A stretch of 64,000 bases of DNA, from contig KN817588.1 of NCBI GenBank assembly GCA_000827495.1, positions 24,354-88,353 of the forward strand. Direction: 5' to 3'. This stretch comes from Hypholoma sublateritium FD-334 SS-4. Lineage: Eukaryota; Basidiomycota; Agaricomycetes; Agaricales; Strophariaceae. Below the pieces are notes generated by a model, which searched no databases, was not told the origin of the DNA, and worked only from the letters and a program-made list of their open reading frames with translations. Every line of letters begins with the position of its first letter. Position 1 is the first letter of the stretch. The translations under genes were made by a program, and so were the position numbers. Below, one piece after another: positions 18,700 to 61,004 of this stretch.

Positions 18700-19190
18700 A
18701 CGTGTCTGTACTCTGAAGCCCACGCGTCCGCGGACTGCAAAGAGCTACAGGAAGGGAGAGTGAGACACACTGCGTCGCCTCGACAAGGCAGTCGATGATG
18801 CGCGCTGCAGAGCGCGCACCGAGTTTATTCAGTCCCTAGACAACGATTATAGTTATGGGAGAGTCGTGAGGGGAGCATGGTCCATGCTCTCCAGCTGTCA
18901 GAGTGCCGCAGGGCTGCACGATAAGAATATGCAGCTGATGCGTCACCATGCGTGCAAGAACGGCCGGATCTCCGTCGACCGGGCAGCCAACAATCTCGCG
19001 CGCGAGGGGGAAAATAATGTATAACTGGTACGCAGGCGACTGGCTACGTGCGGCGCGACTGTGTCGTGAACGAAGAACATCACCTGCGGCATCCGGGCGG
19101 CGATGCATGAATCAGCGATGCTTTTCACGGCGAGTGCGCTGCGCGTAGGGTTGCGCACCCGTACGCCATAAAGTGAAACAACGCATAGGA
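18700..19190 (-). pseudogene. NACHT-like relic, copy G
   Basis: Broken member of the family described under copies A-F. One minus frame carries NPTRSALAVKSIADSC followed by VMFFVHDTVAP, the stretch that spans the former Walker A and the following strand. A different frame continues with AYQLYIIFPLAREIVG, GDPAVLARMVTHQL and QPCG, matching the AYQLCLxFP, HDPVVLxRSV and LQPL blocks of intact copies. After SPITIIVV, where Walker B should be, there is a stop; further matching text (RIIDCLVEATQ) follows. So there is at least one frameshift and one nonsense change. SIADSC places it nearest copy B. No glycine-lysine P-loop is present here either. No N-terminal motif exon was found. Confidence 0.55.
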
Positions 19191-21931
19191 GTCCGTGGAC
19201 AGTGTCTGTGCGATTTCTGCGCTTAAGCGGCGCCGCAGCCAAAAAAAAGAGAATAGAGCCGCGAGCGGGAAGGAAAAAGGAAAAGGCAAGTGGCGCGCGC
19301 GATACGAGGCGCCTAGCCCTAGCAGCAGGGAAACCGCTCGGGAAGTCGCTTTCCAAGGCCGCGCGGAAGGCCGCACCCAACTTTGTGCGCACGAGCTTGC
19401 CGTCGACGGATGTGCACTGCGCTGCCCGGGCTTCCATGTAAATATGGCCAAAGCCAGACTCATAACTAGCGGGTGTAAGGAATCCTTGACTGTGAATCAC
19501 GTTTGAAACCGTTACGAATAGGTCTCCGTATGGAATATATTTGTCGTCATTGACGCCCGTTGTTAGTAAACTGGGGACGAGGAGGAAGATAAGTTGTACG
19601 CCAAGATGTGTCAGAATTATCGGTTCGACAGGCTGATATTAATCGACCTGATGTTTCTTCATACGCATCAAAGAATGAAATACGCTCTACGAATTAAAAT
19701 ATCCGCTCTGGATCAACGGGGGAGGCAATGAGGCCACTTACACTGTCGCAGTCGTCGCAGGCTTCGACGGCTTTACGATACATGTAGCATCGAAACAATG
19801 TTTTGCAGCCCAGGCACAGGCTAAGTTTGTCATGGAACTTAACATCCTTGCTAGCCAAATATTATCTCGTCGTGTGGCTATTTTAATTTGGTTTTAATGA
19901 CAAGAACTTGGAACTGAGGACACCTGCACACAAGCTATATGATCATTGAAAAAATAATTTGTGTGGTTGCAACTTGCGAGCAAATCTACGTCCTATCACG
20001 CTCAGGGCATCTTGAATCATTTGCTTGCACGTCGACATCCTAACTACTGATCTTATGATCATGGCTGATTATAGGCACGTCTTCAAATGTGTTCGCAAAC
20101 TTTGCACTGGTCTCCGCCAGTTCCGTGAGTCCCCGAAGGCCTCGTGTCGGTCTCCGTATGTCAATATGGACAGCATGTCATGTCAATGATATGCAGGTGT
20201 GAGTAGATGAAGAGATCCGCGGGATTGGGGAAGTAATGTCTAGATACACACTGGGGAATCGGGATCATGTAGAAGAAGATATTCTATGGTGTGCTGAGTC
20301 GTTGTATGGGAATGGGCACTTTTTGCCGAATGATGTTATCGGTCAAGGGTTTAATGCACTCTCACACTGATAGACGTATGATATAATCTTACTAGTTGAG
20401 GTTGGTTCTCTCACATGAATAACGTTCAAAAATATAGCAATAGACAGCTGAATGATTCAGTACTCCACCACTAACATTTTTCGTCGGCCGTCTAAGGCTT
20501 TCCTGACCAGTAGAGAAAAATGCAGACTCGGTGAGAGGTAGCCGAATTGAGTTGTACCTGTTGATGCTATAAAATTCTTCCCAAACGTTTGGATGAGAAA
20601 ACATATAATTACAATGAGATCTCTACCCAAATCATGGACAGGACTCGGGAGCAATACATTCAGCCTGCATGCTCAAATATAATTACCGCCAGTGGGATTC
20701 CGAGCCCATCGGCCTTGAATCCCGCTTCTGACCTTCGAAGCCAAAGTCGTTCAGCTACAGCTTATAATTATAGGCCATCAATGGCCACAAGTACTCTAGA
20801 GCGCAGTGAATACATATTCAATATGACGGGATATATAAACTATTATACAGAGAATTTCGTGGAGCATTCACCGCACTATGCGCACTGGATGCGCGATGGT
20901 TAATCTTAGTCTGATTCTTAGAGGTGTGCTCTGTAGACAGCATTTCATGGACTGATTGCTAGTAGCAAATTATCAGGGGCCTTGATTTAACCGCCAACCG
21001 AGATCATACAAGTACACATTGTAGCGTGTGTTCAGGCTTTGCCAACGTCCTTCCATTGTGGAACATTTGGATGGTATGGCCTTGAATAAACTTGAATACA
21101 AGGGTAGCCACACTTTGCTGCAGAAAATATTTGGGAAATCCATGCAAAACAAGCCGTAAATGCTTTAACTTCTGAAGGAGGAAAAGTTTGGCCCTCGAGC
21201 TTGAAAAGAATAGAGATATCATGGCAGACAAACTAAAGCGCGTCATAATTATAAGTATATTGTTGCGGTGAGACTCTACATAAATGCCCAATGCACTTGA
21301 GGGGTTGATGTTGGCATTTTTGATACATAGATGCTGCCAAATGCAAATACAATAGCTTGTACAGGAGCGAGAACGTCTACTTGTACATTTTCTGATAAGC
21401 ATCGAGTCACTGTTGACAATATTACGGTACATTGTCTGAACCTTATTGCGGATGCAAAGCGAGGAAAGTCCGTGCCACTGGCTGCTCCCTCGAGCGGTGA
21501 TTTGATTAACCCAGATCAATGGGCGTCGATGACGACGTCAGCCCGTCGTATCACGATGAGCGCTGACCCGGAGTGTTTAAATGGTAAATCAATGTGACCG
21601 TGGTGATATGGTAGCGATGGCGCCTATTCATAGGATTCCCGATAGGTACGTGGATGGACAAATAGTATGTGCTATGTATTTCGGTGTTTAATATGTACTC
21701 GTGTCATGTCTCAATAGCAAGGATATCCGCCGTTATGGGGTTGAACAGATATTCGAGGATGTTCGCCGAGTGCTATTTACGTTGTACGAACCTTCACCTA
21801 GCAGGAGTGATGTATCATGTGAACAGTCCTGCAGTTGTCCCAAATTTGAAGGATCGGCGGTTCAACATTCAGGCTGATTGAAATGATCATAGATGATATA
21901 TGATAGCTGACATATTCTAGAGAATCAAGTA
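19191..21931. other. Gene-poor stretch
   Basis: Minus and plus frames of 80-190 residues occur at 19125-19506, 20589-20903 and 21004-21597. None shows a domain, consistent splice pairs or family text. The stretch may hold decayed genes. Nothing can be called. Confidence 0.5.
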
Positions 21932-22621
21932 CTATCATCGACCCACACATCGGACAGCCCTACCTTTCGGACACAATGAATATCTCACCCATTTCTTACT
22001 CCCTCACTCCAATTCTTTTTGGTACGTGNTCTATAGAGTCCTAGTATCATANTCCAGGTGTTTTTACTACAGTAGCTAGCCTAGAAAAAAAGCTGAAAAT
22101 TGGCCTCTTTGTCACGTTTGCCGAGCTGCGCCGTGTCGGAGATTGATTAAACACAGCCACATTGATGCCATTCACACGCCCGGGACGCGTCTACTTTGCG
22201 TCTACTTACTCAACGTCTGCTCAACATCCTCCGAGTCCGAGTCCCTAACTATCATCTACACCAAGCACAAGCACCTCTAATATAAGGTCCACATGCTGTT
22301 CATACTCATGTTGAATACTATACTCACTTTCTTACTATGTAACTTCCATAAATTCTACCAAGTAATTAAATCAAAAATAAATATACATTGTATCTGTTCC
22401 AGTTGTATACATACTGGCTCTCTTAAATACCCATTCTTGAACCTTAGTATACATTGTGTCTATATGAGCTGATAGGTACGCTAATGCGCTCTCGCGCTCA
22501 ACTCCAGCCCAGCTTCTTGCGGCTCGCATGACGTCGGAGCTCGAAATATTCCATTTAAGGAGTGTGACTGATGTGTGACTGTCCGAAAGGTAGGGCTGTC
22601 CGATGTGTGGGTCGATGATAG
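21932..22621. mobile_element. 690-bp TIR element with TA target duplication (Tc1/mariner-like, non-autonomous)
   Basis: The ends are perfect 42-bp inverted repeats: 21932-21973 begins CTATCATCGACCCACACATC, and 22580-22621 is its exact reverse complement. A TA dinucleotide flanks each side (21930-21931 and 22622-22623), the duplication left by Tc1/mariner-type transposases. No transposase frame lies inside, so it would need one in trans. Identical ends suggest recent movement. Two N bases lie inside, at about 22029 and 22052. Confidence 0.8.
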
Positions 22622-22623
22622 TA

Positions 22624-23817
22624 CATAAATTACATCTGTTTGAATCCGCACGATGCGACAAGTATTCGACTGAAAGCGATTCGGAACTGGGCTTTGAATA
22701 AAGAACCAACAAAGCACCTGCAACACCTTACCTTAAATAAAAGACCACAGCCGCAGCCAGCAACTCAGCTGATTGTTCTTGGACATGTTGTCTCTATCAA
22801 CAACCCAGGTAGATGTTGCGATTTATAAGTGAACGAGATGAACTCCATTTGGTTCGATGCTGGCAATGGGGCAATGGTGTAAATTCCCTATTGTGGCACG
22901 CTCAGGGAGATTGACATACGTAACAGGCGCGTATCAATCAGTTGGAATTCAGGGGCGCGATTCAGAAAATTAGGTCCCTGGGAAGTAAGGTAGTGCGGGC
23001 ACCTGTCGTACGAGTCCATGGAGGTCTGAGGGGTGAGTACCCGAAAGCAAGCAAAGTCATTCAGGTCAAGGATTTGGGGTTGCCACTCACCCGTATGAAG
23101 GAGAGTATTGCATTATCGAAGGTCCAGTCTGGCACCTAAACATGTCGCAATATTGTCATAGACATCGTCGACCGTAACCGAAAGTCGGAGATGGCATTAT
23201 TGAATCCAGTCCGGCACTAGCGGCATGACTGCATTGGGGATACTCAGCGAAGTCGGGCAGCCAGGGCAATCATGAGGCGGTGCTGCCCCCCGCATCGAGA
23301 TCGTGATTTGAATCGGCGTCAAAGGATCATGGATGTATCGGCCTCTAGTGAACGTAGGGTTACCTGCACGTGCAGTGAGCACAATATGGATGAGAACGTT
23401 AAAAAAGCTAGGACACACCTTGCTTTTCCTTCCATCCTACCTCTACGACAAATTCCACACTTTGAAAGCAAGTGAAAGTCGTAAAGGCGCAGCCTCATTC
23501 CAGAACAAATACAGTACAGACGCAACAGCTGAACATCGACTCGATCGGGCGAACCAGTAAGACAACGGTATGTCCTTCACAGATATGCCAAATTGAATGC
23601 TCGTTGATGGTACGCTTGTACATTATAACCAGGAATGCCGCAGGAGAAAAATGACAGATTCTCTCCAAGCACCGGAAGCACTGGCATCCAAGTCGATGCA
23701 ATAACGGGTATTCTATGCATACAAAGGGGATCGGTAGCACCCGACACCACCGTCCGGGGTGTTTCCCACCAAGAAACTTTAGGAATCGAGCGAATTAGCA
23801 ATATCTCATCACAAGAG
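22624..23817. other. Spacer between TIR element and DUF6699-like gene
   Basis: A small repeated phrase (GGCATTATTGAATCCAGTCCGGCAC-like) occurs near 23105-23135 and 23190-23218. Otherwise no supported gene. Confidence 0.5.
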
Positions 23818-24506
23818 ATGAAGGCGCAGACATACACCAGGGTCTCCTCGACATCCTCGTCGTCACTCGAGTCTCCGCTAATAGGTCATCCCCGACGCTC
23901 ACCGCACTCTGCGCAACACCCCAGTCGCTCTCCAGAGACACACCTACGCGCGGGAAATATTGAGGTGAGAAAAGGGGTATACGCAGGTTAAACAAACTAA
24001 CACACCATACTGCAATCATTCAGGTTCGCCCTGTACAATCGCCGCCGTCTTCTCCACCTCCACTTCCCCGTATGGGGACGATACAGCTACCCCGACAGTA
24101 CCCAGAAGGGATTTCGCTGAATCCGATCTTGACACGCCGAGCTCTTGGCCAGAGTGCTATCATCAACTGGAACCTAAGTCAGTCTATAACGACAGCGACT
24201 GTGACATCATTCGGTACCGACAGAAGTTGGGCATATCAGCCTGCCACAATCCCCCCTACGCCAGCAGCGACACTTCGCATCGAAGGCCTCGAGAGAGCAA
24301 TTGTAGTGCACTGCTCGTCCGAGGCGCTTACAGTGGCAGATGTTTTGTTGGCTGTCGACCGAGCCACAGAGGGTTGGGCGGTGCGCTGCAGATCTTTTGA
24401 AGGTTTGCAATGGGGAGGCTTGTACGAGAGCCCAGAGGAGGTCGAAGTGTGGCTTGTCGATTTTCGTGGGCGATGGCGATCTTATCGGGGATCTGGATGG
24501 CCCTGA
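23818..24506 (+). CDS. DUF6699-like domain protein
   Basis: Two exons, 23818-23964 and 24024-24506, joined by a GTGAGA/CAG intron in frame. Exon 1 encodes a Ser-rich leader starting MKAQTYTRVSS. Exon 2 encodes a Pro-rich linker and then a compact domain: LNPILTRRALGQSAIINWNL, TPAATLRIEGLERAIVVHCS, LTVADVLLAVDRAT. From family knowledge, Agaricomycete DUF6699 proteins share this order of L-N-P-x-L, W-D/N-L and a beta strand before VxDVL. The function of the domain is unknown. The gene is intact. It is upstream of, and on the same strand as, the metacaspase, about 1.4 kb away. Confidence 0.65.
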
Positions 24507-25817: not shown

Positions 25818-25955
25818 ATGTCCACTGGGCCTCTCATCATTGCCCTCGCACGAGTGAGCTGCAGGGGGGCAATCCCCGCTCGAATATCACTCGCAGCTTA
25901 CCTTCATCTAATCATAAAACCGCCCACCTTCGCTCCTCTGTGCAAGTTGCTCAAG

Positions 25956-28563: not shown

Positions 28564-29535
28564 TTAAGAAACGAAATTCCTGGCGATGGCCCAGAAGTCT
28601 TTCATCCGTAAACAGCATTGCAAAAACCGGAAAGATAATAATCCACCTGTTGGTTGGTTAGTGATAGAGTAATCTGACGAGGACGACCGTGTATCGCACT
28701 CAATTTCTATTGCAGCCCCTTGTCGTATTATGGGAGACAGGCTTTGTGTGACTCCAGTTGAAGATTTAGTAAACAGTAGGACGCGCACGTCTTGCGGAAA
28801 TTGTAGCGCGCATTTAACAAGCATCTCAATGACCAGTGTCTGCTCTTCATGTTCCAAGTAGTCACATCCGTCCACAATGAAGAGTATGTGGTGGGAATGA
28901 ACGGTGTATGTATCGGCAGAGAGGATCACTGCAATTGGTTGCAGAACGAGCGTTTCGAGTTGGTCGTATGGGGAGCGTGATAGGACAGCTGGATCGTAGG
29001 CGACACAATTTTAAATACAGTCCAGAGCCAGTTGGGACGCGACGCCGAGCTGATACGCAATAGTTGCAATAAATTCAGTGGGAATTTCGCTATTCCTGGA
29101 ATTTTCATCGAAAAAAAATGTGGCCAGGGATACACGCCGCCCATGAGCTTGACGATCGGCGACGATTTCTGCAATGGCGGATACACATGATGGTCCGTGC
29201 ACCCATAGTATATTCTCGGCTGCACTGGTATCTTGAATCCACTTTAGAACCTTGAAAATGATCTCCTCATGTTCCCTGGCTGTGTTCTCACGGCTCCTTC
29301 GACGGCTACTCGAGTTGTAGAGGGCGTTAAAATTGGCTTTCCGATATAGCAGTTGCCATCCTTCTGGCAATCAATACAGGCACGGAATAGTATGACCATC
29401 GGACGTGCCTTGATATTGTATCAAGAATTTGTGGCAGTTACAGGCTTGAATGTTGCCTTTGACGTCAACGAATGTTCCTCCAGAAATAAGTGTGTGATTG
29501 CTGCCCGCCAATATTCCAGTAACTGTGTGGTTCAT
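28564..29535 (-). pseudogene. NACHT-like protein without P-loop, copy A (one internal stop)
   Basis: Exon 1 is 29535-29409 and starts MNHTVTGILAGSN. It carries the LISGGTFVDV form of the N-terminal GG-x-F motif. Exon 2 is 29360-28564. The intron, 29361-29408, has a GC donor (AAG|GCACGT) where other copies have GT. The NACHT-like core reads WVHGPSCVSAIAEIVADR in place of Walker A, then FIATIAYQLG, DPAVLSRSPYDQLETLVLQP, Walker B ILFIVDGCDYLE and LLFTKSS in the sensor-1 place. A TAA at 29013-29011 interrupts the frame between AYQLG and the DPAVL block; the frame is otherwise whole at 308 codons. So it is either newly inactivated or carries a base error. It is convergent with the metacaspase, 330 bp apart. 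Confidence 0.85.
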
Positions 29536-33105: not shown

Positions 33106-34125
33106 TTATTCTCTCTGTGTGTGATACAGAGGCCTTGCGATACTAAATATCAAGATCAGACAACCGCTCAATAGCCGGGCGAACATTCTGATATCGATAT
33201 GCCTCATAAAGGCGGATGCGACCTGCCGAATAGCAGATACTATGCTGGAAACAGAAAACCACAGCGCTGAGCCTTTTGCTGACGCAGACAAGATCTCGGG
33301 GACTGTGATTATGGTGACGGGTTTCTGGATTTGGGAAGTATTCAACAAATGCTCAATCTCCTGCGAAGGTGCGCTGAATAAAATGAGTGCTACTGGACGA
33401 GGAAGACATTCTATGATTTCGAGGAGGGCGTGAGTGATGACTCGCTGCTGTTCGGCGGGATACAGGTGAATGTAGTCGACGATAATAACCGCTGGATGCG
33501 ACAGGGTGAGGCGGTGTGATTGCTGGAGGGACGTGAATGGGACGAGAATCAGTTCGCGGAGCTGATCACATACTGAGCGTGAAAAGATGGCGGGATCGCG
33601 TTCGATGGCAGCAACGACTAGTGTACGCGCTCCCGGTACAAGAAGGCAGAGCTGGTATGCAATCGTTGGGATGAACGCTGTATAGTGTGGGTGGATGTCG
33701 TCCGCCGATTCGCGAAAGAAGAACGTGACGGGGGACAAGCAGGAGTCAGCGATGCTTTGCGCAATGCTGAATATTGCGGATGGGCCATTGACCCACACAA
33801 GTCTGGTTGACGGTGTGTCTTCATTCAAGTTGATAATGTCTGTAATTGCCTTTTGAATGGCTTCGTGTTCAGCGCATAGGTACCTTGACGCGCCGTGCTG
33901 CCCCGAGGAGTTATGGAAGGCGCTTGAAGCAATGCTCCGGGCGAGCAAGCTCCATCCTTGGTGTTTGATTAGCATACTGTAGATGGGTGAAGTGCATGTA
34001 CACATACCGTGCCATCCAATTCCACAGCGCTCAACAAGCTTGAACGTTCCGCCCACAACGACAACATTGCAATGAGAGAACACCCCACTTGAGCTGGTTA
34101 AGTGGTCCCGTTGCTCAGCTGGCAT
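33106..34125 (-). CDS. NACHT-like protein without P-loop, copy B
   Basis: Exon 1 is 34125-34008, starting MPAEQRDHLTSSSGVF and carrying CNVVVVGGTFKLV. Exon 2 is 33956-33106. The intron, 33957-34007, has GTATGT, a CTAAT branch site and an AAG acceptor. The frame is 322 aa without a stop. The Walker A place reads WVNGPSAIFSIAQSIADS, with no GxGK. The core continues VTFFF, FIPTIAYQLCLL, DPAIFSRSVCDQL. Walker B reads VIIVDYIHLYP, so the second acidic position is lost, and sensor 1 is LILFSAPS. A hydrophobic C-terminal segment (LLSGCLILIFSIA) may bind membrane. B groups with E and G by lacking the D-G-x-D signature. A 56-bp tandem repeat lies in its upstream region. Confidence 0.85.
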   Translation of the reverse strand: MPAEQRDHLTSSSGVFSHCNVVVVGGTFKLVERCGIGWHGMCTCTSPIYSMLIKHQGWSLLARSIASSAFHNSSGQHGASRYLCAEHEAIQKAITDIINLNEDTPSTRLVWVNGPSAIFSIAQSIADSCLSPVTFFFRESADDIHPHYTAFIPTIAYQLCLLVPGARTLVVAAIERDPAIFSRSVCDQLRELILVPFTSLQQSHRLTLSHPAVIIVDYIHLYPAEQQRVITHALLEIIECLPRPVALILFSAPSQEIEHLLNTSQIQKPVTIITVPEILSASAKGSALWFSVSSIVSAIRQVASAFMRHIDIRMFARLLSGCLILIFSIARPLYHTQRE

Positions 34126-39676: not shown

Positions 39677-39724
39677 ATTATTTTTGGTGTCCTTTGGTAT
39701 TTACAAAAAGAAATAGTCTATTTC

Positions 39725-41479
39725 CTAAGCACAATGGCACGACCTCCCACAATGGAAACACCGCGTGGATGGAGCTCGGTTTGGATCAAAAAAATCTTCT
39801 CGCTTCTCTGTCGGATTGTCATTCCATGAAATGAGGTACTTCACTATAGTCAAATTAGAAAACTCAGTGCTCCAACCTCCCCAGTCGCAGATGCGACGTA
39901 AAGGCCAACACCGGTCAGAAGCCAGGTACTGGCAGCCACCACGACGGAAGGAGTGAGTTCCATATGGAGCAGGATCAATGCCTATATCAATCAAATTGTT
40001 CCGAAATACTTCAAGAAATTGTTGTGACATCTTTAAAAATAAATTGGTTGAGAATATTGACAATGCATATGATATTGTGAGCATACCATTGGTGAATTTC
40101 TCGCAGATACACGGTCACCAGAGACCATTCTTCGGAAGAGATAGCCTGTTGTAATTTTACTCTCACGTATCCACTCTGACATCGCGTGAACAGGACACAA
40201 ATAGGCCTCTTCATTGCCAAGCGCATGTAGAACAAAAGGCTTGATCTCTAACATATAATTAGCCTCGTGTGAGAAGGAGCTATTGATAGTGCTCACCTCC
40301 GAATTGATGGGTTTTCCGAAATGGCAATGTGAGAACAAGTTGAAACTTGTCCCCATCACGGATGAACTCCACATGCTCAACTTGGATTTTCAAGACTTCG
40401 TCCACATGAAGAAGACATAGAAAAGCAATTATATAAATTGCTTGCACAGCGCGTCGGTGAAGTGGGCCACCCCATTGGTGGATATTGGGTTTCTCTTGTC
40501 GTGATCCTGGCTTATATTCATGTATATCATAATTCTCGGGCAAATGATTATAATCATATAGTGCCTCGAGAATTTTCTGTGTATTTCTGTTCAGACAACA
40601 CAGAAAGCACAACATACAAGATGGGCACTTGCCGGAGTGATTGCTCTCGCACTTGTGGGTGCCTCTCCGCTTTGCACCTAAAATAGAATAGCATTAATAC
40701 AAATGCATCAAAATACTCTAATTTGTGACGTTGCTCACCTTACGTCGCCGTAGGCTTACCATGTACATAGCAACATCACTTGATAAAGAAGGATTGCCAA
40801 CTGGGGTTCCCGTTCTTGGTACGTTCCATGGGATGCGGCCAGCTTGGCATTTTCTTCCGAAGATGTATGTCATGCTAGCACGCATTTTCTGTGCGTGAGT
40901 GTAGGATGAGCGGGTGCCTACTGCCGGCTTCCCATCAAGTCCAATTGTGTCGCATCTAACCGTACATTTATAAATAATCATAATAGATAAAAATAATGAC
41001 ATACTCATTCATAATCCAGACGACGATGAGAAAGGGGGTGCTAGGAAGAGGTGTGGTTGAAATAAATTCATTGCGGGTCTTGATCAGATTTTTAGAAATT
41101 AGAAATGCGACGCAAGCCTCAGCCAATCTGAAGAAATGAGCTTGTTAAATTCAATCAAGCTACACGAGTGGAAAAATTACCGCAAGTATCCCATCTCTGT
41201 GGTATCAGTCACTCCTTTCGAGACGCCAGCAACTGTCTGTTCCAATTGTGATCTCGACAAATCAGCAGGGGTGTTAGCAGTGGGAATCGGCTTGCCATCA
41301 TCCGGCTCAGGCGGTGGATTGATGTCATCGTCTAACAAATCAGGCAAGGTCTCCTGTTCACCTTCAATATCTGCTTCGACATCGTCTGGCGACGGCCGGT
41401 CGGCTCTGTTTAAAAATGCTGTGAGACCGGCGTATTCTTTCTGAAAGAATTGAGGGTGGTAAGCTGCAAGAGAAGGCAT
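39725..41479 (-). mobile_element. Crypton-like tyrosine recombinase gene
   Basis: Cut-and-join DNA enzyme of Crypton-type elements. The ATG at 41479 starts MPSLAAYHPQFF. Exons are 41479-41181, 41127-41005, 40955-40760, from 40677, about 40570-40303, then exons to 39725. The core-binding domain includes GTRSSYTHAQKMRASMTYIF. The catalytic domain has GGPLHRRAVQAIYIIAFLCL, the box II motif THSFRRGG (H-x-x-R) and IVKYLISWND with the nucleophile Tyr. It ends in a Cys/His tail, CFHCGRSCHC. The box I Arg, expected in a CLLRVDEVLK context, is His here (CLLHVDEVLK), which could abolish activity. No stop or frameshift was seen. No TIR was found, as expected for Cryptons. Confidence 0.88.
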
Positions 41480-45628: not shown

Positions 45629-46598
45629 TCAGGTATGTCCATTCCTCCTGGTTACTTTCTTCACCATGTTCCAGATATGTTCGATAATTGCACGGAGGGC
45701 GAAGGGGAGGTAAGGGTTTGCCTGATCGTCTACTTGAAGTCGCTTATCGTCAAAGCTGATCTCCATCACTGATCCATTCTCTGCACCTGACGTGAGGGTC
45801 GTTGATATCCCAGTCGACGACTCGGTGAACAGTAGGATACGCACACGGAGGGGAAATTGTTGGGTAAGTTTGAAAAGTGCATTGAGAACGCAAGTCTGAG
45901 TGAAATCATCGAGGTAGTCGTAACCATCCATTATGATCACCACTGGATGATTTTGGACATTTCCCGCACCCTCTGAAACAGGAAGAAATGGTGCGAGAGG
46001 CTGTAAAATCAGGGAATCAAGCTGGCGGGAAACGGAGCGCAGTAAGACGACCGGATCGTGTGCCACGATTGTTCCAATTTCTTCGCGTAATTTTGGAAAA
46101 GAAAGGCAAAGTTGATATGCGATCGTCGGAACGAACCGCGTCCGGACATCCTCGTTGTCAGGAACTCTGCCAACAAAATAGGTAGCAAGGGGTGCATGAT
46201 CCTGCTCTTGAAGATTTGCGACAGCGTGGGCAATTGTGTGTGTGAATAATGGCCCATGAACCCATAGTATGTGCTCCGCCACTTGTGAATCCTTAGTCCA
46301 GTCCATGGTGATCCGAAGAATGTCTTCGCATCGCGTGGGGAGACTTTCGTGGGTTTCATTCTGTTTGATTGAATCATGGAAGGCGTTTGTGTCAATGCTA
46401 CGGAAGAGGCGCTCCAGTCCTTCGCAAACATTAAGTAAATCCGAGAACAAGATACATAGCTCACGACGGACCACGTTGGATGTCATAGCTTCGGTACCCA
46501 TCCGATCTTTGGATATAATTGAAGCTCCCTCCATTTATGTTCACATTTCTACTTCCTGGAAGTATTCCAAAACATCTAGTGTTAAATGGAGTAGACAT
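45629..46598 (-). CDS. NACHT-like protein without P-loop, copy C
   Basis: Exon 1 is 46598-46472, starting MSTPFNTRCFGILPG with RNVNINGGSFNYI. Exon 2 is 46419-45629. The intron, 46420-46471, has a GTCCGT donor, an AAG acceptor and phase 1. The product is 305 aa with no stop. Walker A is replaced by WVHGPLFTHTIAHAVAN. The core has YFVGR, FVPTIAYQLCLSFP, HDPVVLLRSVSRQLDSLILQ, Walker B VVIIMDGYDYLDD (second acid kept, following acid not), and LLFTESS at sensor 1 without Arg. It ends RRNGHT. It is nearest to copy D over the whole length. There is no C-terminal repeat domain, unlike complete NLRs. The likely role, by inference, is a catalytically dead NLR-related regulator or adaptor in the cytosol. 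Confidence 0.88.
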
Positions 46599-49500: not shown

Positions 49501-50076
49501 TGATTTTCCGCAACGGCGATTCTGAGAGGCCCAAAGCGTTCGCCGTACTTCAGCACACGGTTGATCCGCACGAAGTTATATTCTGCAACCTAGGCTTGGT
49601 GATACGTCAGATACTACTTTTAAGTATACCTATCTGTGTGGGAATATAGACAGTCAATCCTCAGTCGATGCTGAGTTCCCATGAGCAATCGCGGGTATGG
49701 GGACTGCTCGACTTGAAGCCAGCCATACCGGATTGGACTGACGTCCCAACGGGTATGCTAGGGCCTGGGTGAGCGCAGCACTTCTTCAGCACAGCCAAGA
49801 GCTATGCGAGGCCGTTATTACACGCGCAGCCAACACGTTTTCTGGGTACTATGCATGTGCGAAGTACGGTGCGGTGGCGCCTTTCGTCAGGGCATTCGTT
49901 CTCGGCGTTTCGCACGGCGCAAGGAGTGGTGGCGGCGACGCGTCGGCCGGCCGAGGTAAAAATAAAATACAAGAGTTCGTAATAGCATCTGTAACAGCGG
50001 GACGAAAGGGGACAAATAATCGTCGGATTTCAGACAGGGGAGTTGAGCATGTTTGTCTTCATAAAAAAAATCAAAG
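46599..50076. other. Spacer between copies C and D, mostly GC-rich
   Basis: A plus-strand frame with an ATG at 47458 stays open to 48240 (about 260 codons), but its text is low-complexity Pro/Ser with no domain, and it is not called. 48300-49340 is GC-rich with overlapping frames. 46700-47100 and 49350-49770 are AT-rich and empty. Confidence 0.5.
48804..48833. repeat. (ACC)10 microsatellite
   Basis: Ten perfect ACC units. One frame would read as poly-His and the opposite strand as poly-Val or poly-Gly. No gene holds it. Confidence 0.95.
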
Positions 50077-51117
50077 TCAGCGAAGCAATAGGTGTAAATA
50101 CGTCAATAAATTTATCCTTCTCTCGAATACGAAAGTGCTCACGTTATTAATATGCCCATTCTTCCTAAATACATACTTCACTGTGTTCCAGACCTGTTCG
50201 ATAATTGCACCGAGGGTGAAAGGCAGGTACTGTCTCGCTTGATTGTCCACTTGAGGCCGTTCAGCGCCAAAGCTAATCTCTATCACTGATCCATCATCTA
50301 CACCTGACGTGAGGGGCGCTGATACCCCAGACGACGATTCGGTGAACAGTAGGATGCGCACGCGGAGCGGAAATTGTCGGGCAAGCTTGAAAAGGGCATT
50401 GATGACACAGGTCCGGGTAAAATCGTCGAGGGAGTCGCATCCATCCACAATTATTACGACCGGATGATGGCGGACGCCCCCCATACTATCGGAAACGGAC
50501 AGAAATGGTGCGAGGGGTTGGAGAATCAACGAATCGAGCTGGCGGGCGACGGAGCGCAACAATACGACCGGATCGTGTGCGACGGCTGCGCCGATTTCTT
50601 CGCGTAATTTTGGAAAGGAAAGGCAGAGTTGGTATGTGATCGTCGAAATGAAGCGCGCGCGGACATCCTCGTTGTCTGGAGTGCGGCCCACAAAATAGGT
50701 CACGAGGGTCGCGTGTTCTTGCTCTTGAAGATTTGCAACGGCGTGGGCAATTGTGTGTGTGAATGATGGCCCGTGAACCCAGAGCATGTGTTCGGCAACT
50801 CCTGAATCCTTAGTCCAGTCCATGGTGATCCGAAGAATGTCTTCGCATCGTTTGGGTAGACTCGCGGAGCTCTCGTTACGCTTAATTGTATCGTGGAAGG
50901 CGTTTGTGTCAATGTTACGGAAGAGGCGCTCCAGTCCTTCGCAAAATTGAGTAAACGTCCAGGACAAGATACATACTCGCGACGGACCACTTTGGATGGT
51001 GTGACTCTGGCACCCGGCATCCGATCTTTGGATACAAATGAAGTTCCCTCCATTTATATTCACATTTCTACTTCCTGGAAGTATTCCGAAACATCTTGAG
51101 TTAAATGGAGTAGACAT
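50077..51117 (-). CDS. NACHT-like protein without P-loop, copy D
   Basis: Exon 1 is 51117-50988, starting MSTPFNSRCFGILPG with RNVNINGGNFICI. Exon 2 is 50936-50077. The intron, 50937-50987, has a GTCCGT donor. It happens to be read through in frame, so a spliced 329-aa and an unspliced 346-aa form are both open. Splicing is favoured because copies C and F need it. The Walker A place reads WVHGPSFTHTIAHAVAN. The core has FISTITYQLCLSFP, HDPVVLLRSVARQLDSLILQ, Walker B VVIIVDGCDSLDD and LLFTESS. It is closest to C, but its C-terminus continues about 25 residues past RKNGH, where C stops. No repeats follow. Confidence 0.88.
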   Translation of the reverse strand: MSTPFNSRCFGILPGSRNVNINGGNFICIQRSDAGCQSHTIQSGPSRVCILSWTFTQFCEGLERLFRNIDTNAFHDTIKRNESSASLPKRCEDILRITMDWTKDSGVAEHMLWVHGPSFTHTIAHAVANLQEQEHATLVTYFVGRTPDNEDVRARFISTITYQLCLSFPKLREEIGAAVAHDPVVLLRSVARQLDSLILQPLAPFLSVSDSMGGVRHHPVVIIVDGCDSLDDFTRTCVINALFKLARQFPLRVRILLFTESSSGVSAPLTSGVDDGSVIEISFGAERPQVDNQARQYLPFTLGAIIEQVWNTVKYVFRKNGHINNVSTFVFERRINLLTYLHLLLR

Positions 51118-53789: not shown

Positions 53790-56700
53790 CACTGCCCCGT
53801 CCAATTCATCACCTGCGTCCGTCCCGTCCCGTGCGCGACCTGCACGCGTCCCACGTCCAGCCACTTCGCACGCCCTCGTTCTCCTCGGCAGATTCCTTGC
53901 GCGCTTTCCACGTCCCGCACGCGCTGTACGAGGATGGGTCGGAGGTGTCGCGCGTTACAGGTAACAGGAGAAGAACATGTGTGCGCGGACGAGGATGAAG
54001 CCCGTGCGCAGCTGCAGCTCCGCATGATGCTGTCAAAATAAGGGCGCATCTAATCATATGGTGATACGCTGACAAGCGTCCTACGTGCAAAATGACGGCG
54101 GCGAGCAAATGAATAAAAACAAAATATGGCATCGAGAGGCAGTGGGAGCGCGGGAACTTGTCATGTGACCTAGTGCACTTTGTCGAATTTCGCGAGCGGC
54201 GTGAGCGCGGGCTCATCAATAGGAAAGAGATAGTCAGTCTGCAGTCGACGGCGATAGTTCGTGCCATTGATCTCCTGTGTGCAGATTCAACTCGACTCGG
54301 AAACTAGCTCAGCGGCAGACCGAGCCAGGTTGACGTCCCATTGACGAGGCGGATTGGGCTTGGGTGTGCAGCAGAGCTTCTTCAGTACAATCAGAAATCA
54401 GAAACTTTCGAAGGTATTCTTGGGATGCTATGGCTGTTCGAAGTGCGATGCGCGAGGCTCCGTGGACTTGCCATGGACCCTTTCTTTGCGAATAAGGGCA
54501 TTCGCTATGGTGGCGGTGCAGTGATGGGCGGGCCGGATGTGCCGTTTTTTCAACACGCTGACACCAGCCCACTCACTCCCTGCTTGCTCTCCGCATCCCC
54601 CTGCTCGAGCTCTCTCCAGCAGCGCAGACCCTCCGTCGCCGCCGCCGCCGGAATCTAGGGCGGTGTCGCTGCTCCCCGAGGCTCCTCTCGGCGCGTCCCG
54701 CCGCAGCGTCGACACCTGCCCCCCGGATCCGTCCCGCCGTCCCGCGCCCGTGTTTCCCCGCCTGCGCCGTACTCCACCAAGCGCCCCATCAGCTCCCTGC
54801 TGCCCACGTTCACCTCCCCGCCCGCGCACTCTCAGACCGTTCTCCGCGGCCCGCATTTGCGTCCGGTGTCTTAAATCTCAGCGCACGGACCCGCCGTCAC
54901 ACTTCCACCCACCTTCCTCGCTGGGCCCCCGCCGCCCGGGTGCGCGTTGTCCTCCGGCTCGCAGACGTTGTGTTAAGTCGGGGCGGAGGTGGGGCGGAGG
55001 TGGGGGTGGGGGTGGCGCGGAAGGGGTGGACGGGATGCAGGAGAAGGGTATTTACGCGCGTGGGGGGCGCAGCACGGCGATACCCCCCCCTCTGCCTGGC
55101 CATCTCTGCCTGCGCACGACTGCGCAGCGATGATACGGCCCGCGCGCAGCCGCAGCCTCAAATACGCCGTGGTGCCGGCGCCGGACATGGCGAAGGAGGT
55201 GCTGCGTTTATAGGTTGGCCGCAGGCACGCGCAGGCCCACGCGGTGGGTGCACGGAGGAGCGGGACTGCCACACCTGGGGCGCGTCCCGTCGCGCGCATG
55301 CTTATCTCATATTGGAGCCCCGCTCATCTCGCACGACCTGCGCGTTCCGCGCGGCCCCACCTACACCGCCAGCGCCCCGCCCGGCACCACGCGTGCGCCG
55401 CTCAATGAGTAGAGACTACTACCCGCCCGCACGCCAATGCACGGCGTGCGTCCCCATGCACATCCCCGTACGTAGCATGACGCCAGCGTCGGCGGTAGTG
55501 CGTTGGCGCACGGGCAGAGGCCGCGCCTAAACATACACCGGTAGATGGGCCGTCGGTTCTGTCCATGGCCCGCCGTGTCCCCTGCGGTGTTTATGCCGCG
55601 TCGTCCCGTGCTTTCGTGCTCTGCGCCGTGCGCACGGCGGGTGCGCGTCCCGTCGCGCCACGAATCCATGCTCGGCATCGATGCGTCTGCTGCGGGTGCC
55701 TCGATGTGTGTTGTAGCAAATGTGTTCGGGATAACCTGAGATCGCTGTCCCGGTGCGCCGTATTACTTGCGCTGTGCACACCTTCAGCAGCGCGGAGCGC
55801 ATTGGCGTTGCGTGATCTGCACCCTCCCCCGAATAAAGCTGTGTAAGCGCAGAAGGGCGGAGTTCGAACAGCATTGTTGAGAGGCGGATCACCGGCTCGG
55901 AGGGGCATGGGGGGTTGTATGCGCGATCACTGCTGTTGTACATAAGCGAATCTAGGCAGATATCGCCCAGTAATCAGGATCAGCATTTTCCCACACTATA
56001 AACAGCTGAATGCCTCGTCGTGCACACGCGCATCACTGCTGTTGCCCGCCCGTCCGAGGCGTAGACGTAAGCGAATCTAGTTCGATTTCGCCGAGAACGG
56101 AGGGGAGTGGTCAGGATCGGCGTTTTCGCAGACTGAACAGCTGCAGCACGCGTTGTGTTTTGGTGCTCATGCGCAGAAGACGGGCTGATGACAGCCTACA
56201 ACACAGTTCTACGGCTTCGATGTGCTGTGTTCCCAGCGGAACAGCGGGTACTATCCCGCGCGTCTGCGTACCTTGTAGCTGTATCTCCTTTACGTGTGTG
56301 ATGTTAAGCGGTCGTACTATATAAGATGGCCTTCTGTGGCCATCTACGCAACTATATGCTCCCTTCCAATACGACTGGACAGCCCGCAGACGCCAGGACG
56401 CAAGTGAAGAACGTATGATACTGCGGGTCCTTGGGGATTCAGGTACTCTGAAATCACCTAGTTAGAGATAGCACGTTCAGCCTACAAGTTTTCTAAACGA
56501 TCCTGCGATTCTATCGCGACGGGATTAAGATTCGATAACGCTGAACCCTAACCTACCGAGCGTGTTTTCGGCCATCGAAAGGGAGTTGAAATATTGATTT
56601 TATTGTCATTTGTGATTTCAGGCGATGTGAAGATATATACGCATGGGTTATTTAATCTGTGCCCAATTCGAGGGATATCTAGTCGCCATATACTCACCCC

Positions 56701-57246
56701 GTCATCTCTCGGTATTCTGGGATATACGTGTCCAGCTGCATTTGAAAATGTTCTTTGTTGTTCAGCGTCGAAATGCCGTACTATTTTATGTCATCATATA
56801 TGCACACCTTTCGCAAATGAACAACAGCTAAACAACAGCTAAACAACAGCAACATCCAAACAACAGCGGGGTGTTTTCCTACGGGATGATCATAAGCACA
56901 GCGTTCGGCATAACAGCAATGGTACCAGGTGCTGTCACCTGCGGTGGCGTGGGAGTGTAGCATGTGCGCCTTCCTTGCTGTTGTATGCCCGAGAAAAGCA
57001 TAGACACAAGCTGGTCTACTTAGATTACACGTCTGCGCCTGTCACCCGCATTTAATTCACAGGCTAAACAGCTGTAGCACAGTTCTTACCCACGCACAAC
57101 AGAGAGAAAAACAGCAAAATATACACAAATGCGTACCTCTGGTACCATCGCGCTGGCTTCTATGTGTTGTATTCTCATCTGGTCTAGGAACAGCAGTGGA
57201 ACTACAACCCGTGTTAGTCAAACAGCTGTACCGCTGCGTTTCGCGA
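53790..57246. other. GC-rich islands and diverged repeats, no gene called
   Basis: 53800-54030, 54530-55530 and 55540-55960 are GC-rich with overlapping frames and no domain. Phrases such as AAGCGAATCTAG and GAACAGCTGCAGCAC recur at 55920-56010, 56030-56240 and 57060-57230, suggesting diverged duplicates. An AACAACAGCT short tandem lies at 56820-56865. Confidence 0.45.
54980..55015 (+). other. G-quadruplex-type sequence
   Basis: Four or more runs of at least four G, separated by CGGAGGT or T, on the plus strand, fit the G3+N1-7 pattern. The surrounding island has no gene. Confidence 0.7.
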
Positions 57247-57255
57247 TGTATATAA
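57247..57255 (+). promoter_or_regulatory. TATA box of copy E
   Basis: TGTATATAA lies about 45-50 nt upstream of the ATG at 57299. Confidence 0.4.
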
Positions 57256-57298
57256 CATCGTGATACTTCCCCCATATAATGCAACACCCCTTTGTCCC

Positions 57299-58334
57299 AT
57301 GCACGACTCCATCCTTCACCAGGTTAGCGAGGAAAAAAGCTCCTCGTCTCATGGGAAGCCCGTATCGTCGCACCTCCGACGCCCTCACGGAAAGCATACT
57401 TCCAAAAAGATCTCCTTTAACTGTATACAGAACGATTGCTCCGATTCTTTATTCTCAAAAAGTAAAGTTGTCATTATGGGGGGTAACTTCGTTGCCCACA
57501 TAGGCTCCGAAAATGAAAGTGAGTAGGCCCATCAAAGTTCATGCATAGTGTGCGATACTTATACAATCAGGTCTCCATGGGTGGAATATGTTGGTCGAAA
57601 AGATCTCCAAAGACGTGTTCCACGACTCGGCAGCCCGATTTCCTCTTCCAGGAAGTTTAGATGGACAATACACAGACGTTTGCACACAAGTAATCAACTT
57701 GATCACGAAACAAACCACATCATCATGTATAATCCACATCCACGGCGCTTCCGGTACTTCCGAAATATCCCAGAATATTGCCGATTACTGCTTCAGATCA
57801 GATATTCGGCCCGTAACATTTTTCTTTGGCAAAACCAAAGAAGAATATTTCTCGTCCTTCATACCAACCATCGCATACCAGCTCTGTCTTATCTTCCCAG
57901 AATCGCGGAAACTCGTGTCGCAGGCCATCGACGACGATCCTGCAATTCTATCACGATCACCCCTTTCCCAGCTAGAAGCCCTAATAATCTCTCCGTTTGC
58001 CCAAATTCGCCGTTCATGCCATCCTGATAGCACCAATCCTACGCTTGTCGTCATCTTGGATGCCATTCACAGATGTAGCTCGACTCATCAGAAACTTCTC
58101 ATTCAAGCGATTTCATCTATGGCAAAGCGTTTTGCATTCCCCGCGACTTTCTTAATCTCCAACAAGCCCACGATATGTATCGAGCTTACATTCAAAGAAT
58201 GCGCACGTACCCTGCCAATTATCATCAAAATACAAAGCAACAAGACTTTCAAGAATCTGCTACGGAAATTTGTTCTGTTGTCTCGAACTATCTTCCTCAT
58301 CCATTGTTACGGTGCTCCTTTTCACTGTCTATGA
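57299..58334 (+). CDS. NACHT-like protein without P-loop, copy E
   Basis: The only plus-strand copy. Exon 1 is 57299-57518, starting MHDSILHQVSEE. It is longer than in the others and ends with VVIMGGNFVAHIG. The intron, 57519-57570 (GTGAGT/CAG), is at the family position and phase. Exon 2, 57571-58334, starts SLHGWNMLVEKISKDVFHDS. The Walker A place reads IHGASGTSEISQNIAD, with no GxGK. The core continues VTFFFGKT, FIPTIAYQLCLIFP, DPAILSRSPLSQLEALIISP, Walker B LVVILDAIHRC (signature lost) and FLISNKP at sensor 1. The product is about 327 aa and intact. It pairs with copy B in lost Walker B and in FIPTIAYQLCL wording. A hydrophobic tail (LLSRTIFLIHCYG) ends it. Confidence 0.85.
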
Positions 58335-58677
58335 TTACAAATTTATAATCGTTGGACTTTCTCTCTTATTCACCAGCAGACATTCGGCCCACTGCTCTGT
58401 GGTTAATGTAGTATTAGTAAGGTGCCTTATGTGGTAGCAGCTACTTTTGGATGTCCGCTTTCCCAGCAACTGGCGCGACTTGCTTGCGCGACCGTGGGAG
58501 ATATTTCTCCCTTGCCTGGCGCGTACCGTTAAGACGCAGTTTTAGCAAAGTTTTAGATGTGCTAGTTGTGGAATGAGCTCGTTAGAGGGGCATCGAGCGG
58601 CTGAACGACATGAAATCGCGCGGGGAGAGAAAAGCGGCCCGTCCCGGCTTAATGCATCCGCCGGCCTCGCCGACGCC

Positions 58678-59137
58678 AGGCCCCGGGAAGGTCACCTAAA
58701 GGTTTGTCCGTCAAAATCAGCCAAAATCGGCCTCAAATCCGCAATTTTTTCGCTATGAAATCCGCAATTTCGGACAAGGATGTCACGTTTGTCACATGTA
58801 TGTCGTTTTGTGACTAGCCCAAAAGCGTGACATGTTTTTCGACATAAAACTTTACACATTTCCTTGACATTTCCATATGTTCGAAATCTCAACAGCAATC
58901 GATCCTAGATGAACAGAGGGAAGTAATGCCGCCCAGGAAGGCAACCGGAAGCCTTTGCTTAATATTTACATAGATAAGCGTACTTGATGAAAAAAAAGTT
59001 GTCCCAACTACCATCTCAAATCCGCAAATCCGGACAGTATTTTCAAAAATTTCGCCCTTCGGGAGCCTCAAATCCGCAATTTTGGACAAGGAAATCGTCA
59101 TTTTCGGACAAACCTTTAGGTAAGCTTCCCGGGGCCT
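58678..59137. mobile_element. 460-bp hAT-like MITE with 8-bp target duplication
   Basis: Inverted ends of 33 bp with two mismatches, beginning AGGCCCCGGGAAG and reaching CCTAAAGGTTTGTCCG. They are flanked by CCGACGCC on both sides (58670-58677 and 59138-59145). An 8-bp duplication is the hAT superfamily hallmark. The interior repeats CAAATCCGCAATTT phrases and encodes no transposase. Confidence 0.8.
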
Positions 59138-59145
59138 CCGACGCC

Positions 59146-60039
59146 ACAACCCACTCTGAGCATGTATTTCTAGACATTTTCCCCACCCCGCATCTACCAC
59201 CACCACCTCGCCCCTCGTTCGTCCCACAAGTCCCGCTCATCCCGTTCTTGCGTCCATTGCGAACACCACAGAGCCTATCCGCGAAACGGCCTCCGCGCCT
59301 TCACACGCACCGCGACCTCCACCCGCGCTTCGACGGGCGCCTTTCGTACAGATGCGGCGTTGGTGGGAGGAGAAATGATAAGAAGCGGTCAGTGGGAAAA
59401 GGTCAGCACGCACGCTTTCCAAGGGACTCGGTCATATGCGCGGTGTCGGCGGCTGGTTTGGACCCGCGCTTGCGCGTGCCCCAGGCGGTATATTCACCTC
59501 CCCATCTCTACCGCCATCCTCAGCACTGCGCAGATCCCCAACGCCCCCTTCCCTCCGTTTACGCAGTGCGATCTGCCCCCTGCGTCGGCTGCGAGCGTGC
59601 CTGCTAGATGGAGAGCGAGGCACACACTGTCCGCGGGCGGAAGGCCGACGCGGAGGGCGACGGCGTGCGCGGTGGGTGCGGTGAAGCGGTCGAGACAGCC
59701 GCGGCGGTGTGTGTCGCGTGCGGAAAAGATGAAGCTTGATATATTCAGGGCGCGCCGTGTGGGACGGCGGTGTGCGGGACAGCGACGATGACGCGTATAG
59801 ATCAGTCGCGTAATTAGGATGGACATAGCGTCCTCGCACGCATCGCATGACATTAATGATAAAGATATATTTCTACAACGGCGTGTTTTTCAAAACAAGG
59901 GATCAGTGGTACATAAGAAAGGCATAGGGATGGAGGTTGTGAAAAGAATTTCGGGTGGACCAGACAGGCTATCAAAATGCGTTAACAAAATCATGGCCAT
60001 CTCAAAGGAAAAAAAGTAGAACTCACGCTAATATGTGCG
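59146..60039. other. GC-rich island downstream of copy F
   Basis: Overlapping frames on both strands at 59160-59850, without domain. It resumes right after the hAT-like element, which sits inside it. No gene is called. Confidence 0.5.
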
Positions 60040-61004
60040 TCACGTACGACCCCTCCTCCATGTTACACTCTTTAATCTGTTCCAGACATGTAATAAAATT
60101 TCAAAAAGACCTGCAGGGAAGTTATATCTTGTTTGATCATCAAAGTGGGTCCGTTCGCCAACAAAGCCGATCTCCGTCACTGAACCGTCCTCTACACCTA
60201 CGGTGAGGTGGGTTGATATCCCAATTGACGATTTCGTGAACATCAGGAGGCGTACGCGAAGCGGAAACAGCTGGGCGAACTTGAGCAGTGCATTGATAAT
60301 AGATGTCCGCGTGAGAACGTCGAGGTAGTCGCATCCGTCCACAATTATCACGATGACTGGATGATGTTGATCGTCGCTCGCATCCTCTCCACCGCACAGA
60401 AATGGCCCGAGGGGTTGTAGAATTAGCGAATCAAGTTGATGGGCGACAGAGCGCGATAATATGGAGGGATCGTGTGCGAGGATGTTCCCAAGTTCTTCGC
60501 GTACTTTTGGAAAAGAGAGGCCAAGTTGATATGCAATCGTCGAGATGAACCGAGCCCGTACATCCTTGTTTTCCGGATCTTCGATTATGAAATAGGTGGC
60601 GAGGAATACATCATCCTGTTCTTGAAGGTCTGCGACAGCTTGCGCAATGGAGGACGTACACGATGGTCCATGAACCCATAATGTGTGCTCCGCTACTTTC
60701 GAATCTCTGACCCAAGCTGTAGCCTTCTGAACGACATCTTTATGCTGCGCGAGGAAGTCTTCGAGGATCATTTCACGGTTAACTGAGTTATGAAAAGCAT
60801 TGGTGTCGACGCCATGGAAGAGGCGCTCCCATCCTGAGTATGAAGTGAATATCGGTGCAAAAATTGTACAGCTTGCCACGTACCACTTTGGATAATGTGA
60901 TTTCGGCAATCACATGCTTGGATATGATGGAAGTTCCCACCGTTGATCAGGTTGCTACTTCCCGCCAATAATCCGAAAGAATTTCCCTTTGACGAGGTGG
61001 ACAT
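60040..61004 (-). CDS. NACHT-like protein without P-loop, copy F
   Basis: Exon 1 is 61004-60884, starting MSTSSKGNSFGLLAG and then NLINGGNFHHI. Exon 2 is 60833-60040. The intron, 60834-60883, has GTACGT and a CAG acceptor, and is the clearest example of the family intron. The product is 304 aa. The region SGWERLFHGVDTNAFHNS links motif and core. Walker A is replaced by WVHGPSCTSSIAQAVAD. The core has YFIIED, FISTIAYQLGLSFP, HDPSILSRSVAHQLDSLILQ, Walker B VIVIIVDGCDYLD and LLMFTKSS at sensor 1. It ends WRRGRT, matching copy C. The core aligns block by block with ordinary Agaricomycete NACHT domains (FIATLAYQLA, DPSIFxRSLxxQLxxLIxxP, IIIDGLDEC), which shows what has been lost. Confidence 0.9.

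What the first reader, a model, noticed from the sequence alone, without database searches (positions are those of the whole stretch)
18700..61004. A dispersed family of NACHT-like proteins that have all lost the P-loop
Seven loci (A-G) match the Agaricomycete NACHT core block by block (xFIATIAYQL, HDPxxLxRSVxxQLDxLILQP, VIIVDGxD). Yet each lacks the GxxGxGKS loop. In its place stand GPSCVSAIAE, GPSAIFSIAQ, GPLFTHTIAH, GPSFTHTIAH, GASGTSEISQ, GPSCTSSIAQ and NPTRSALAVK. The usual Arg of sensor 1 (ASRPE-like) is also replaced (FTKSS, FTESS, FSAPS). Five copies keep open frames of about 304-329 aa and consensus introns, so the loss looks ancestral and tolerated rather than decay. Short pseudo-NTPase NLR relatives without repeats could act as decoys, adaptors or inhibitors.
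Basis: partly seen in the sequence, partly recalled or inferred. Interest (0 to 1): 0.9.

Follow-up and report, generated by a model that had tools for sequence, protein, structure and literature searches.

The report
Immune-receptor relatives that lost ATP-binding loop
A mushroom genome holds a cluster of seventeen short relatives of immune-receptor-like (NLR) proteins; every copy whose loop can be read lacks the ATP-gripping loop, yet twelve keep open reading frames and those tested show purifying selection, so they likely act as silent partners that would damp the full-length receptors.

Summary
The window lies in Hypholoma sublateritium FD-334 SS-4, contig C71 (213,676 bp). Its seven loci belong to a 17-locus cluster on that contig: twelve open two-exon models, A with one in-frame stop, and G, H, J and Q as relics. 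All 13 modelled copies, and 23 of 24 relatives outside this assembly (one starts after the loop), lack the GK of GxxxxGKS through a gap at the same place. The Walker B Glu and the sensor-1 Arg are lost too, KCHxxTR is degraded, and the frames stop before the winged helix and repeats. Elsewhere in the genome 122 of 126 related NACHT loci examined keep the loop. With those columns masked the family is one clade (99.2/100). Pairwise dN/dS among eight open copies is 0.16-0.32 (mean 0.24). AlphaFold keeps a confident STAND fold with a shortened loop. Exon 1 carries a GGxF motif, also found in 11 of 18 canonical NLR loci in hand. So this is a conserved clade of NBD-only STAND pseudo-ATPases, not decay. 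The function I commit to, dominant-negative or titrating partners of intact NLRs, is inferred and untested.

The parts
18509..19160 (-). Copy G: frameshifted relic of the family (loop-like NPTRSALAVK near 19126-19155, position estimated)
   Evidence: tblastn cluster 18509-19111; frames change between motifs; no Pfam hit
28564..29535 (-). Copy A: exon 1 29409-29535, GC-AG intron of 48 nt, exon 2 28564-29360; in-frame TAA at 29011-29013; loop GPSCVSAIAE 29167-29196
   Evidence: open relative P0028 in another assembly
33106..34125 (-). Copy B (sub-clade II): exon 1 34008-34125, intron 51 nt, exon 2 33106-33956; loop GPSAIFSIAQ 33757-33786
   Evidence: NCBI model P0020 uses the same junction
45629..46598 (-). 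Copy C (sub-clade I): exon 1 46472-46598, intron 52 nt, exon 2 45629-46419, 305 aa; loop GPLFTHTIAH 46226-46255
50077..51117 (-). Copy D (sub-clade I): exon 1 50988-51117, intron 51 nt, exon 2 50077-50936, 329 aa; loop GPSFTHTIAH 50743-50772
   Evidence: NCBI model HYPSUDRAFT_205320 (P0001) starts inside exon 2 and adds a downstream piece at window 49664-49759
57476..58334 (+). Copy E (sub-clade II): exon 1 ends 57518 (start uncertain), intron 52 nt, exon 2 57571-58334; loop GASGTSEISQ 57744-57773
60040..61004 (-). Copy F (sub-clade I): exon 1 60884-61004, intron 50 nt, exon 2 60040-60833, 304 aa; loop GPSCTSSIAQ 60640-60669
   Evidence: AlphaFold model
60043..60831 (-). Exon-2 body of F that was modelled: STAND/AAA+ alpha/beta core, four residues between strand 1 and helix 1
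   Evidence: pLDDT 87.5, pTM 0.81; Foldseek and VIA-align hits

Best explanation
These genes encode a single clade of NBD-only NLR relatives that most likely lost the P-loop once in a common ancestor and is predicted to make signal-dead partners that would cap or titrate the genome's intact GGxF-NACHT receptors. Shown: a short GGxF exon upstream, a placeable phase-1 intron, and an exon 2 that covers the NACHT/NPHP3_N core and ends roughly 50-60 residues after sensor 1 in most sub-clade I copies; the GK of Walker A is deleted, and the Walker B Glu and sensor-1 Arg are replaced. Shown: purifying selection in the copies tested. Predicted: the STAND core still folds, with a four-residue turn where the phosphate-binding loop was. 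Inferred: it cannot bind ATP in the canonical way and so cannot switch. Inferred: it still offers the NBD surface and the N-terminal motif to canonical relatives that carry a like motif, so that mixed assemblies stall, which would raise the threshold for receptor-triggered cell death.
Against: No expression, interaction or phenotype evidence. No canonical PF24883 hit lies on contig C71, so no partner is next door. The GGxF comparison is partly circular, because both sets of exon 1 were found with a GG.[FY] pattern; the motif was not seen in 7 of 18 distinct canonical loci in hand. NCBI models of D and O omit exon 1. The former loop is now only averagely conserved (39% of 10-residue windows are less conserved), so nothing shows a new role for the loop itself. 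Isolated NWD2(1-30) assembles and is active without a NACHT domain, so a motif-bearing, ATP-independent protein could instead be an activator. The AlphaFold alignment contained 17 canonical rows of 42, which may carry the fold over. Five of 17 loci are broken.
Confidence: 0.42

Rival explanations
1. Adaptor or seed: the protein is an ATP-independent platform that presents the GGxF motif and promotes, rather than blocks, signalling by canonical NLRs or a downstream effector.
For: A GGxF-type motif (GGYY in M and O) lies upstream in all 13 modelled copies. In the NWD2 system, versions without the repeat region bypass the ligand and residues 1-30 fused to GFP assemble spontaneously (PMC4344463, passages). 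Truncated plant TN2, with GRS in place of GKT, is required for activated defence in exo70B1 (PMC4305288, passages).
Against: NWD2 Walker A, Walker B and sensor I mutants were inactive. No effector carrying the motif was found: one exon-1 peptide searched in the own genome returned 5 matches, all family copies on C71, a weak test that also missed canonical motifs.
Confidence: 0.25
2. Pathogen decoy: the NBD fold is bait for mycovirus, bacterial or fungal effectors that attack canonical NACHT domains.
For: Many clustered copies that keep the predicted fold and lose the switch motifs.
Against: Purifying rather than diversifying selection on average (mean dN/dS 0.24); no site-wise test was run.
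Confidence: 0.1
3. Housekeeping re-use: the fold was co-opted for a role unrelated to NLR signalling, such as a structural or protein-binding subunit.
For: Constraint on the protein; conserved DGCDxLD strand end and a predicted C-terminal helix in sub-clade I.
Against: NLR-type upstream motif and gene layout retained.
Confidence: 0.15
4. Decaying tandem duplicates without function.
For: Five of 17 loci (A, G, H, J, Q) are broken.
Against: Twelve open copies; pairwise dS of 0.54-1.47 with dN/dS 0.16-0.32 among the eight of sub-clade I; a placeable intron in 13 copies; open relatives elsewhere. Caveat: protein databases favour open frames.
Confidence: 0.05
5. Still a nucleotide-binding protein through a degenerate loop.
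For: The first Walker B Asp is kept in 35 of 37 members (12 of 13 and 23 of 24).
Against: The Lys and a Gly are deleted, and the Walker B Glu and sensor-1 Arg are lost.
Confidence: 0.03

Closest known systems
Agaricomycete NACHT NLRs with Pfam NPHP3_N (PF24883) core, in the same genome
   Same: Block-by-block core; a GGxF-type upstream motif in 11 of 18 distinct loci in hand; 9 of those 11 need an intron between motif and core
   Different: 122 of 126 loci examined keep GxxxxGK[ST]; 17 of 17 aligned keep DxxDE and the sensor-1 Arg and 16 of 17 keep the C, T and R of KCHxxTR; most aligned frames run on through the lid
Fungal NLRs with noncanonical P-loops (Dyrka et al. 2014, PMC4986451, passages read)
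   Same: Variants of the P-loop in fungal NLRs are already reported
   Different: Those were single-residue changes at conserved positions; here a fixed deletion of GK with loss of other nucleotide motifs and of the rest of the NLR, across a whole clade
NWD2 of Podospora anserina (PMC4344463, passages read)
   Same: Short N-terminal signalling motif followed by a NACHT domain
   Different: NWD2 keeps the motifs and WD repeats, and activity is lost when the motifs are mutated
Arabidopsis TN2, a truncated TIR-NBS (PMC4305288, passages read)
   Same: Truncated NLR without repeats and with a noncanonical P-loop
   Different: Plant TIR-NBS; GKT to GRS substitution, not deletion; its authors think some P-loop function may remain; no homology tested here
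Pyrin-only and CARD-only proteins (PMC3775265, abstract read)
   Same: Short proteins that can compete with NLR assembly (functional analogy only)
   Different: They consist of a solitary Pyrin or CARD domain and have no NBD
NRCX, a modulator NLR of Nicotiana (PMC9851556, passages read)
   Same: Atypical NLR that modulates other NLRs

Membership tests
Pfam PF24883 NPHP3_N (NACHT-type core) | Score above the curated cut-off of 24.8 bits | tested here: met
   C, D, E, F at 33.7-39.5 bits; B 19.8 (below); G and A's C-terminal frame no hit to it; 11 C71 loci above the cut-off, A's among them; seven outside members 31.8-38.5 and P0011 (copy O) 29.5
STAND/AAA+ fold | Five-strand alpha/beta core | tested here: met
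P-loop NTPase / functional NACHT ATPase | Walker A GxxxxGK[ST] | tested here: not met
   0 of 36 members with a readable loop
P-loop NTPase / functional NACHT ATPase | Walker B D-x-x-D-E | tested here: not met
   First D kept in 35 of 37, second D in 28 of 37, Glu in 0 of 37
P-loop NTPase / functional NACHT ATPase | Sensor-1 Arg | tested here: not met
   0 of 36 with the column filled; 17 of 17 canonical loci keep it
NLR (tripartite STAND receptor) | Lid/winged helix and C-terminal repeats | tested here: not met
   Exon-2 frames stop roughly 50-60 residues after sensor 1 in most sub-clade I copies. Spliced downstream exons were not excluded; the NCBI model of D adds one short piece
NLR (tripartite STAND receptor) | N-terminal signalling region | tested here: inconclusive
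   GGxF exon 1 resembles that of canonical loci, but the comparison is partly circular and signalling is untested
Basidiomycete amyloid-like motifs NLR05/08/22/29/44 (PMC9815663) | Match to the published motif profiles | not testable with these tools
   The logos are in figures that are not held; the text says the NLR05/22 group usually lies at the very N-terminus
Pseudogene family | Relaxed selection and disrupted frames in most copies | tested here: not met
   Mean dN/dS 0.24 over eight copies; 12 of 17 loci open

The most novel reading that the evidence does not exclude
A conserved, multi-gene clade of dedicated STAND pseudo-ATPases in mushrooms: the NLR switch has been turned, by a fixed excision of the GK of the P-loop and loss of everything beyond the NBD, into a built-in negative regulator of the NLR network, the counterpart of pseudokinases for fungal immunity.
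Probability: 0.4. Interest if true: 0.85.

Novelty: new variant of a known kind. Interest (0 to 1): 0.64.

Why it matters
Fungal NLR repertoires are usually counted by their NACHT domain, so a clade that keeps the core, loses the catalytic motifs and stays under purifying selection is easily filed as junk or as truncated receptors. If the proteins regulate intact NLRs, they would show how a fungus with over a hundred NACHT-type loci keeps death signalling in check. They also offer a ready natural test of what the NBD does without nucleotide.

Tried and rejected
Pseudogene decay: rejected on dN/dS, open frames and relatives elsewhere. Hidden exon that restores a P-loop: the loop lies inside one open exon between strand 1 and helix 1; a sense-strand scan found none in 12 of 13 copies and one out-of-context match downstream of A. 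Convergent losses: disfavoured by monophyly with the motif columns masked. A linked second gene family: three of the repeat groups interspersed on C71 gave many overlapping GC-rich frames and no clear gene. An effector carrying the exon-1 motif: none found by one weak search. Sequence search of A2 against solved structures: two chance-level hits. tblastn of F against plasmids: no match. Pfam on ten neighbouring frames: one hit, DUF6699. Rfam on the window: none. Foldseek on F gave 25 matches at E <= 0.001, TMq 0.25-0.45 in the rows shown; the canonical control gave 182, again mostly ORC/AAA+. No Apaf-1 or NLRC4 row is among the rows shown for F; that absence shows nothing. Literature: seven searches listed no description of a loop-less NACHT clade in fungi; most subscription papers are not held. 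Of papers I saw passages (PMC4986451, PMC12258605, PMC9851556, PMC4344463, PMC4305288), an abstract and outline (PMC3775265), and two sections plus passages (PMC9815663).

Limits. Expression, orthologous DNA of named species and site-wise selection were not tested. The dN/dS uses paralogs of one genome, eight of the twelve open copies; in sub-clade II only E-R (0.30) is unsaturated. The codon-model omega of IQ-TREE was not printed, so the figure is Nei-Gojobori. Rows dropped: from the tree, L034 and P0008; from the alignment, L034 and duplicate loci L004 and L031 (L028, a duplicate of L002, was never in the set); from its tree also P0008, P0022, P0026 and P0034. Of 135 non-C71 hits, 9 were not examined for the loop (fragments, weak hits, and one full hit on C148).
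Full report
WHERE IT IS. P0001 (window copy D) and P0020 (window copy B) are named Hypholoma sublateritium FD-334 SS-4 and lie on a contig of 213,676 bp. That is the length of contig C71 of the window's own assembly, in which the window is C71:24354-88353. A search of this genome with copy D, followed by tblastn on the whole contig, finds 17 loci of the family, all on C71 between 42,862 and 193,329: G, A, B, C, D, E and F in the window, and H, I, J, K, M, N, O, P, Q and R beyond it (an 18th cluster is a downstream piece of D's NCBI model). The genome search scores only its best candidates, so 17 is a lower bound. Every PF24883 hit on C71 is a family copy (11 hits).

GENE STRUCTURE. Thirteen copies can be modelled with two exons. 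Exon 1 codes for a short peptide, typically ...GSxNVxIxGGxF... A phase-1 intron of 46-63 nt follows (GT-AG in 12, GC-AG in A). Exon 2 codes for 249-299 residues (265 codons with one stop in A). I placed the intron by homology; the automatic scan ranked other junctions as high or higher in several copies, and B, D and I are also open unspliced. Twelve models are open (B, C, D, E, F, I, K, M, N, O, P, R); A has one in-frame stop; G, H, J and Q are relics or fragments. NCBI models for R (P0016) and B (P0020) use the junction I had placed before seeing them. NCBI models for D and O (P0001, P0011) instead start inside exon 2. No transcript evidence was available.

WHAT IS LOST. In one alignment of 13 family copies, 24 relatives from outside this assembly and 17 canonical loci, every family member with a readable loop (13 and 23) has a gap exactly at the GK of GxxxxGKS; P0012 and P0021 lack one residue more, and P has a divergent loop with the same gap. 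The Walker B Glu is kept in 0 of 37. The sensor-1 Arg is kept in 0 of 36 with that column filled. Of KCHxxTR, the Cys is kept in 4 of 30, the Thr in 1 of 30 and the Arg in 1 of 30 with the column filled. Canonical loci keep Walker and sensor residues 17 of 17 and the C, T and R of KCHxxTR 16 of 17; the four canonical proteins from elsewhere keep the Lys 4 of 4, though two have other loop changes. Family frames end roughly 50-60 residues after sensor 1 in most sub-clade I copies, so winged helix and repeats are missing from the exon. The first Walker B Asp is kept in 35 of 37, the second in 28 of 37 (His in sub-clade II members).

GENOME-WIDE CONTROL. Of 135 non-C71 hits of PF24883 I looked at the loop of 126: 18 loci in hand and 108 stretches of 100 bases. 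GxxxxGK[ST] is present in 18 of 18 and 104 of 108. The four misses are scattered variants on four contigs (GPPGAGQS, GKPNTGTS, GAVSTMKAS, and GAVGAGNS with a stop). Nine hits were not examined.

ANCESTRY. With the P-loop, KCHxxTR and sensor-1 columns removed, the family separates from canonical NACHTs with SH-aLRT/UFBoot 98.9/100 and 99.2/100 with more outside members. Outside relatives fall in each sub-clade: A with P0028, B with P0024 and P0025, E and R with P0014, P0015 and P0017, K loosely with P0027, P0029 and P0030 (26.8/70), and many in sub-clade I. The simplest reading is one loss, then duplication, then passage to more than one strain or species. In the profile search 29 of 33 hits are family members (at least 191 bits, six of them from this strain); the next best is a canonical NACHT at 130 bits.

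SELECTION. Among eight open sub-clade I copies (28 pairs) dN/dS is 0.16-0.32, mean 0.24, bootstrap 95% 0.20-0.29. With assumed terminal branch lengths, neutral substitution leaves each copy without a stop in 0-1.1% of 1000 runs. The former loop is now no more conserved than the rest (39% of 10-residue windows are less conserved), while Asp, Gly and Asp of the Walker B strand score 0.89-1.0 in sub-clade I. This is what a switch turned into a fold-only domain would look like.

N-TERMINAL MOTIF. A GG.[FY] motif lies upstream in 11 of 18 distinct canonical loci in hand; L008 has a GGEF that I did not use, and in the others I saw none in the stretch scanned. A profile from those 11 ranks 12 of 13 family exon 1s above all 1000 shuffles; E fails. 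Both sets were first found through GG.[FY], so this is supportive, not independent. Nine of the 11 canonical loci also need an intron between motif and core. Wojciechowski et al. (PMC9815663, sections 19 and 28 read) describe a basidiomycete amyloid-like motif group usually at the very N-terminus of NLRs; whether GGxF is that motif I could not test.

MECHANISM. In NWD2, mutation of the Walker A Lys, the Walker B Asp or the sensor-I Arg abolished activity (PMC4344463, passages). The family lacks two of these three by descent, plus the Glu. I therefore infer that it cannot switch. Because the predicted fold, the upstream motif and purifying selection remain, I favour a partner role: it would join or titrate canonical relatives and stall them. 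The main rival is an ATP-independent adaptor or seed, for which NWD2(1-30) and plant TN2 are precedents. Nothing here decides between them.

NOVELTY. Noncanonical P-loops in fungal NLRs are known as single-residue variants (PMC4986451, passages), and truncated plant NLRs with altered loops are known. A monophyletic, selected, NBD-only clade with an excised loop I did not find in seven searches. I rate it a new variant of a known kind.

Noticed in passing
window 39725-40693 (-): Two frames read like pieces of a tyrosine recombinase (THSFRRGG), perhaps a Crypton-type element; no Pfam hit. The label is recalled, not from a call.
   Followed up: partly
window 23964-24506 (+): Frame with a DUF6699 (PF20415) match, 27.3 bits against a cut-off of 24.1.
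   Followed up: no
L140, L155, L157, L160 (G000 C79, C52, C87, C61): Four NACHT-type loci elsewhere have altered P-loops (GPPGAGQS, GKPNTGTS, GAVSTMKAS, GAVGAGNS with a stop), on other contigs than the C71 family.
   Followed up: partly
L003/L004 (C102) and L007/L031 (C42/C18): Pairs of canonical NLR loci with identical printed motif and pre-NBD segments, one pair in opposite orientation on contig C102; recent duplication or assembly repeat.
   Followed up: no
C71:101095-102068, 123543-124491, 135251-135782: GC-rich repeats of about 75-79% identity interspersed with the family, without a clear gene.
   Followed up: partly
P0028 (ncbi contig of 347,487 bp, no name): Open 265-aa relative of copy A in another assembly, showing that the A lineage is not broken everywhere.
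   Followed up: partly
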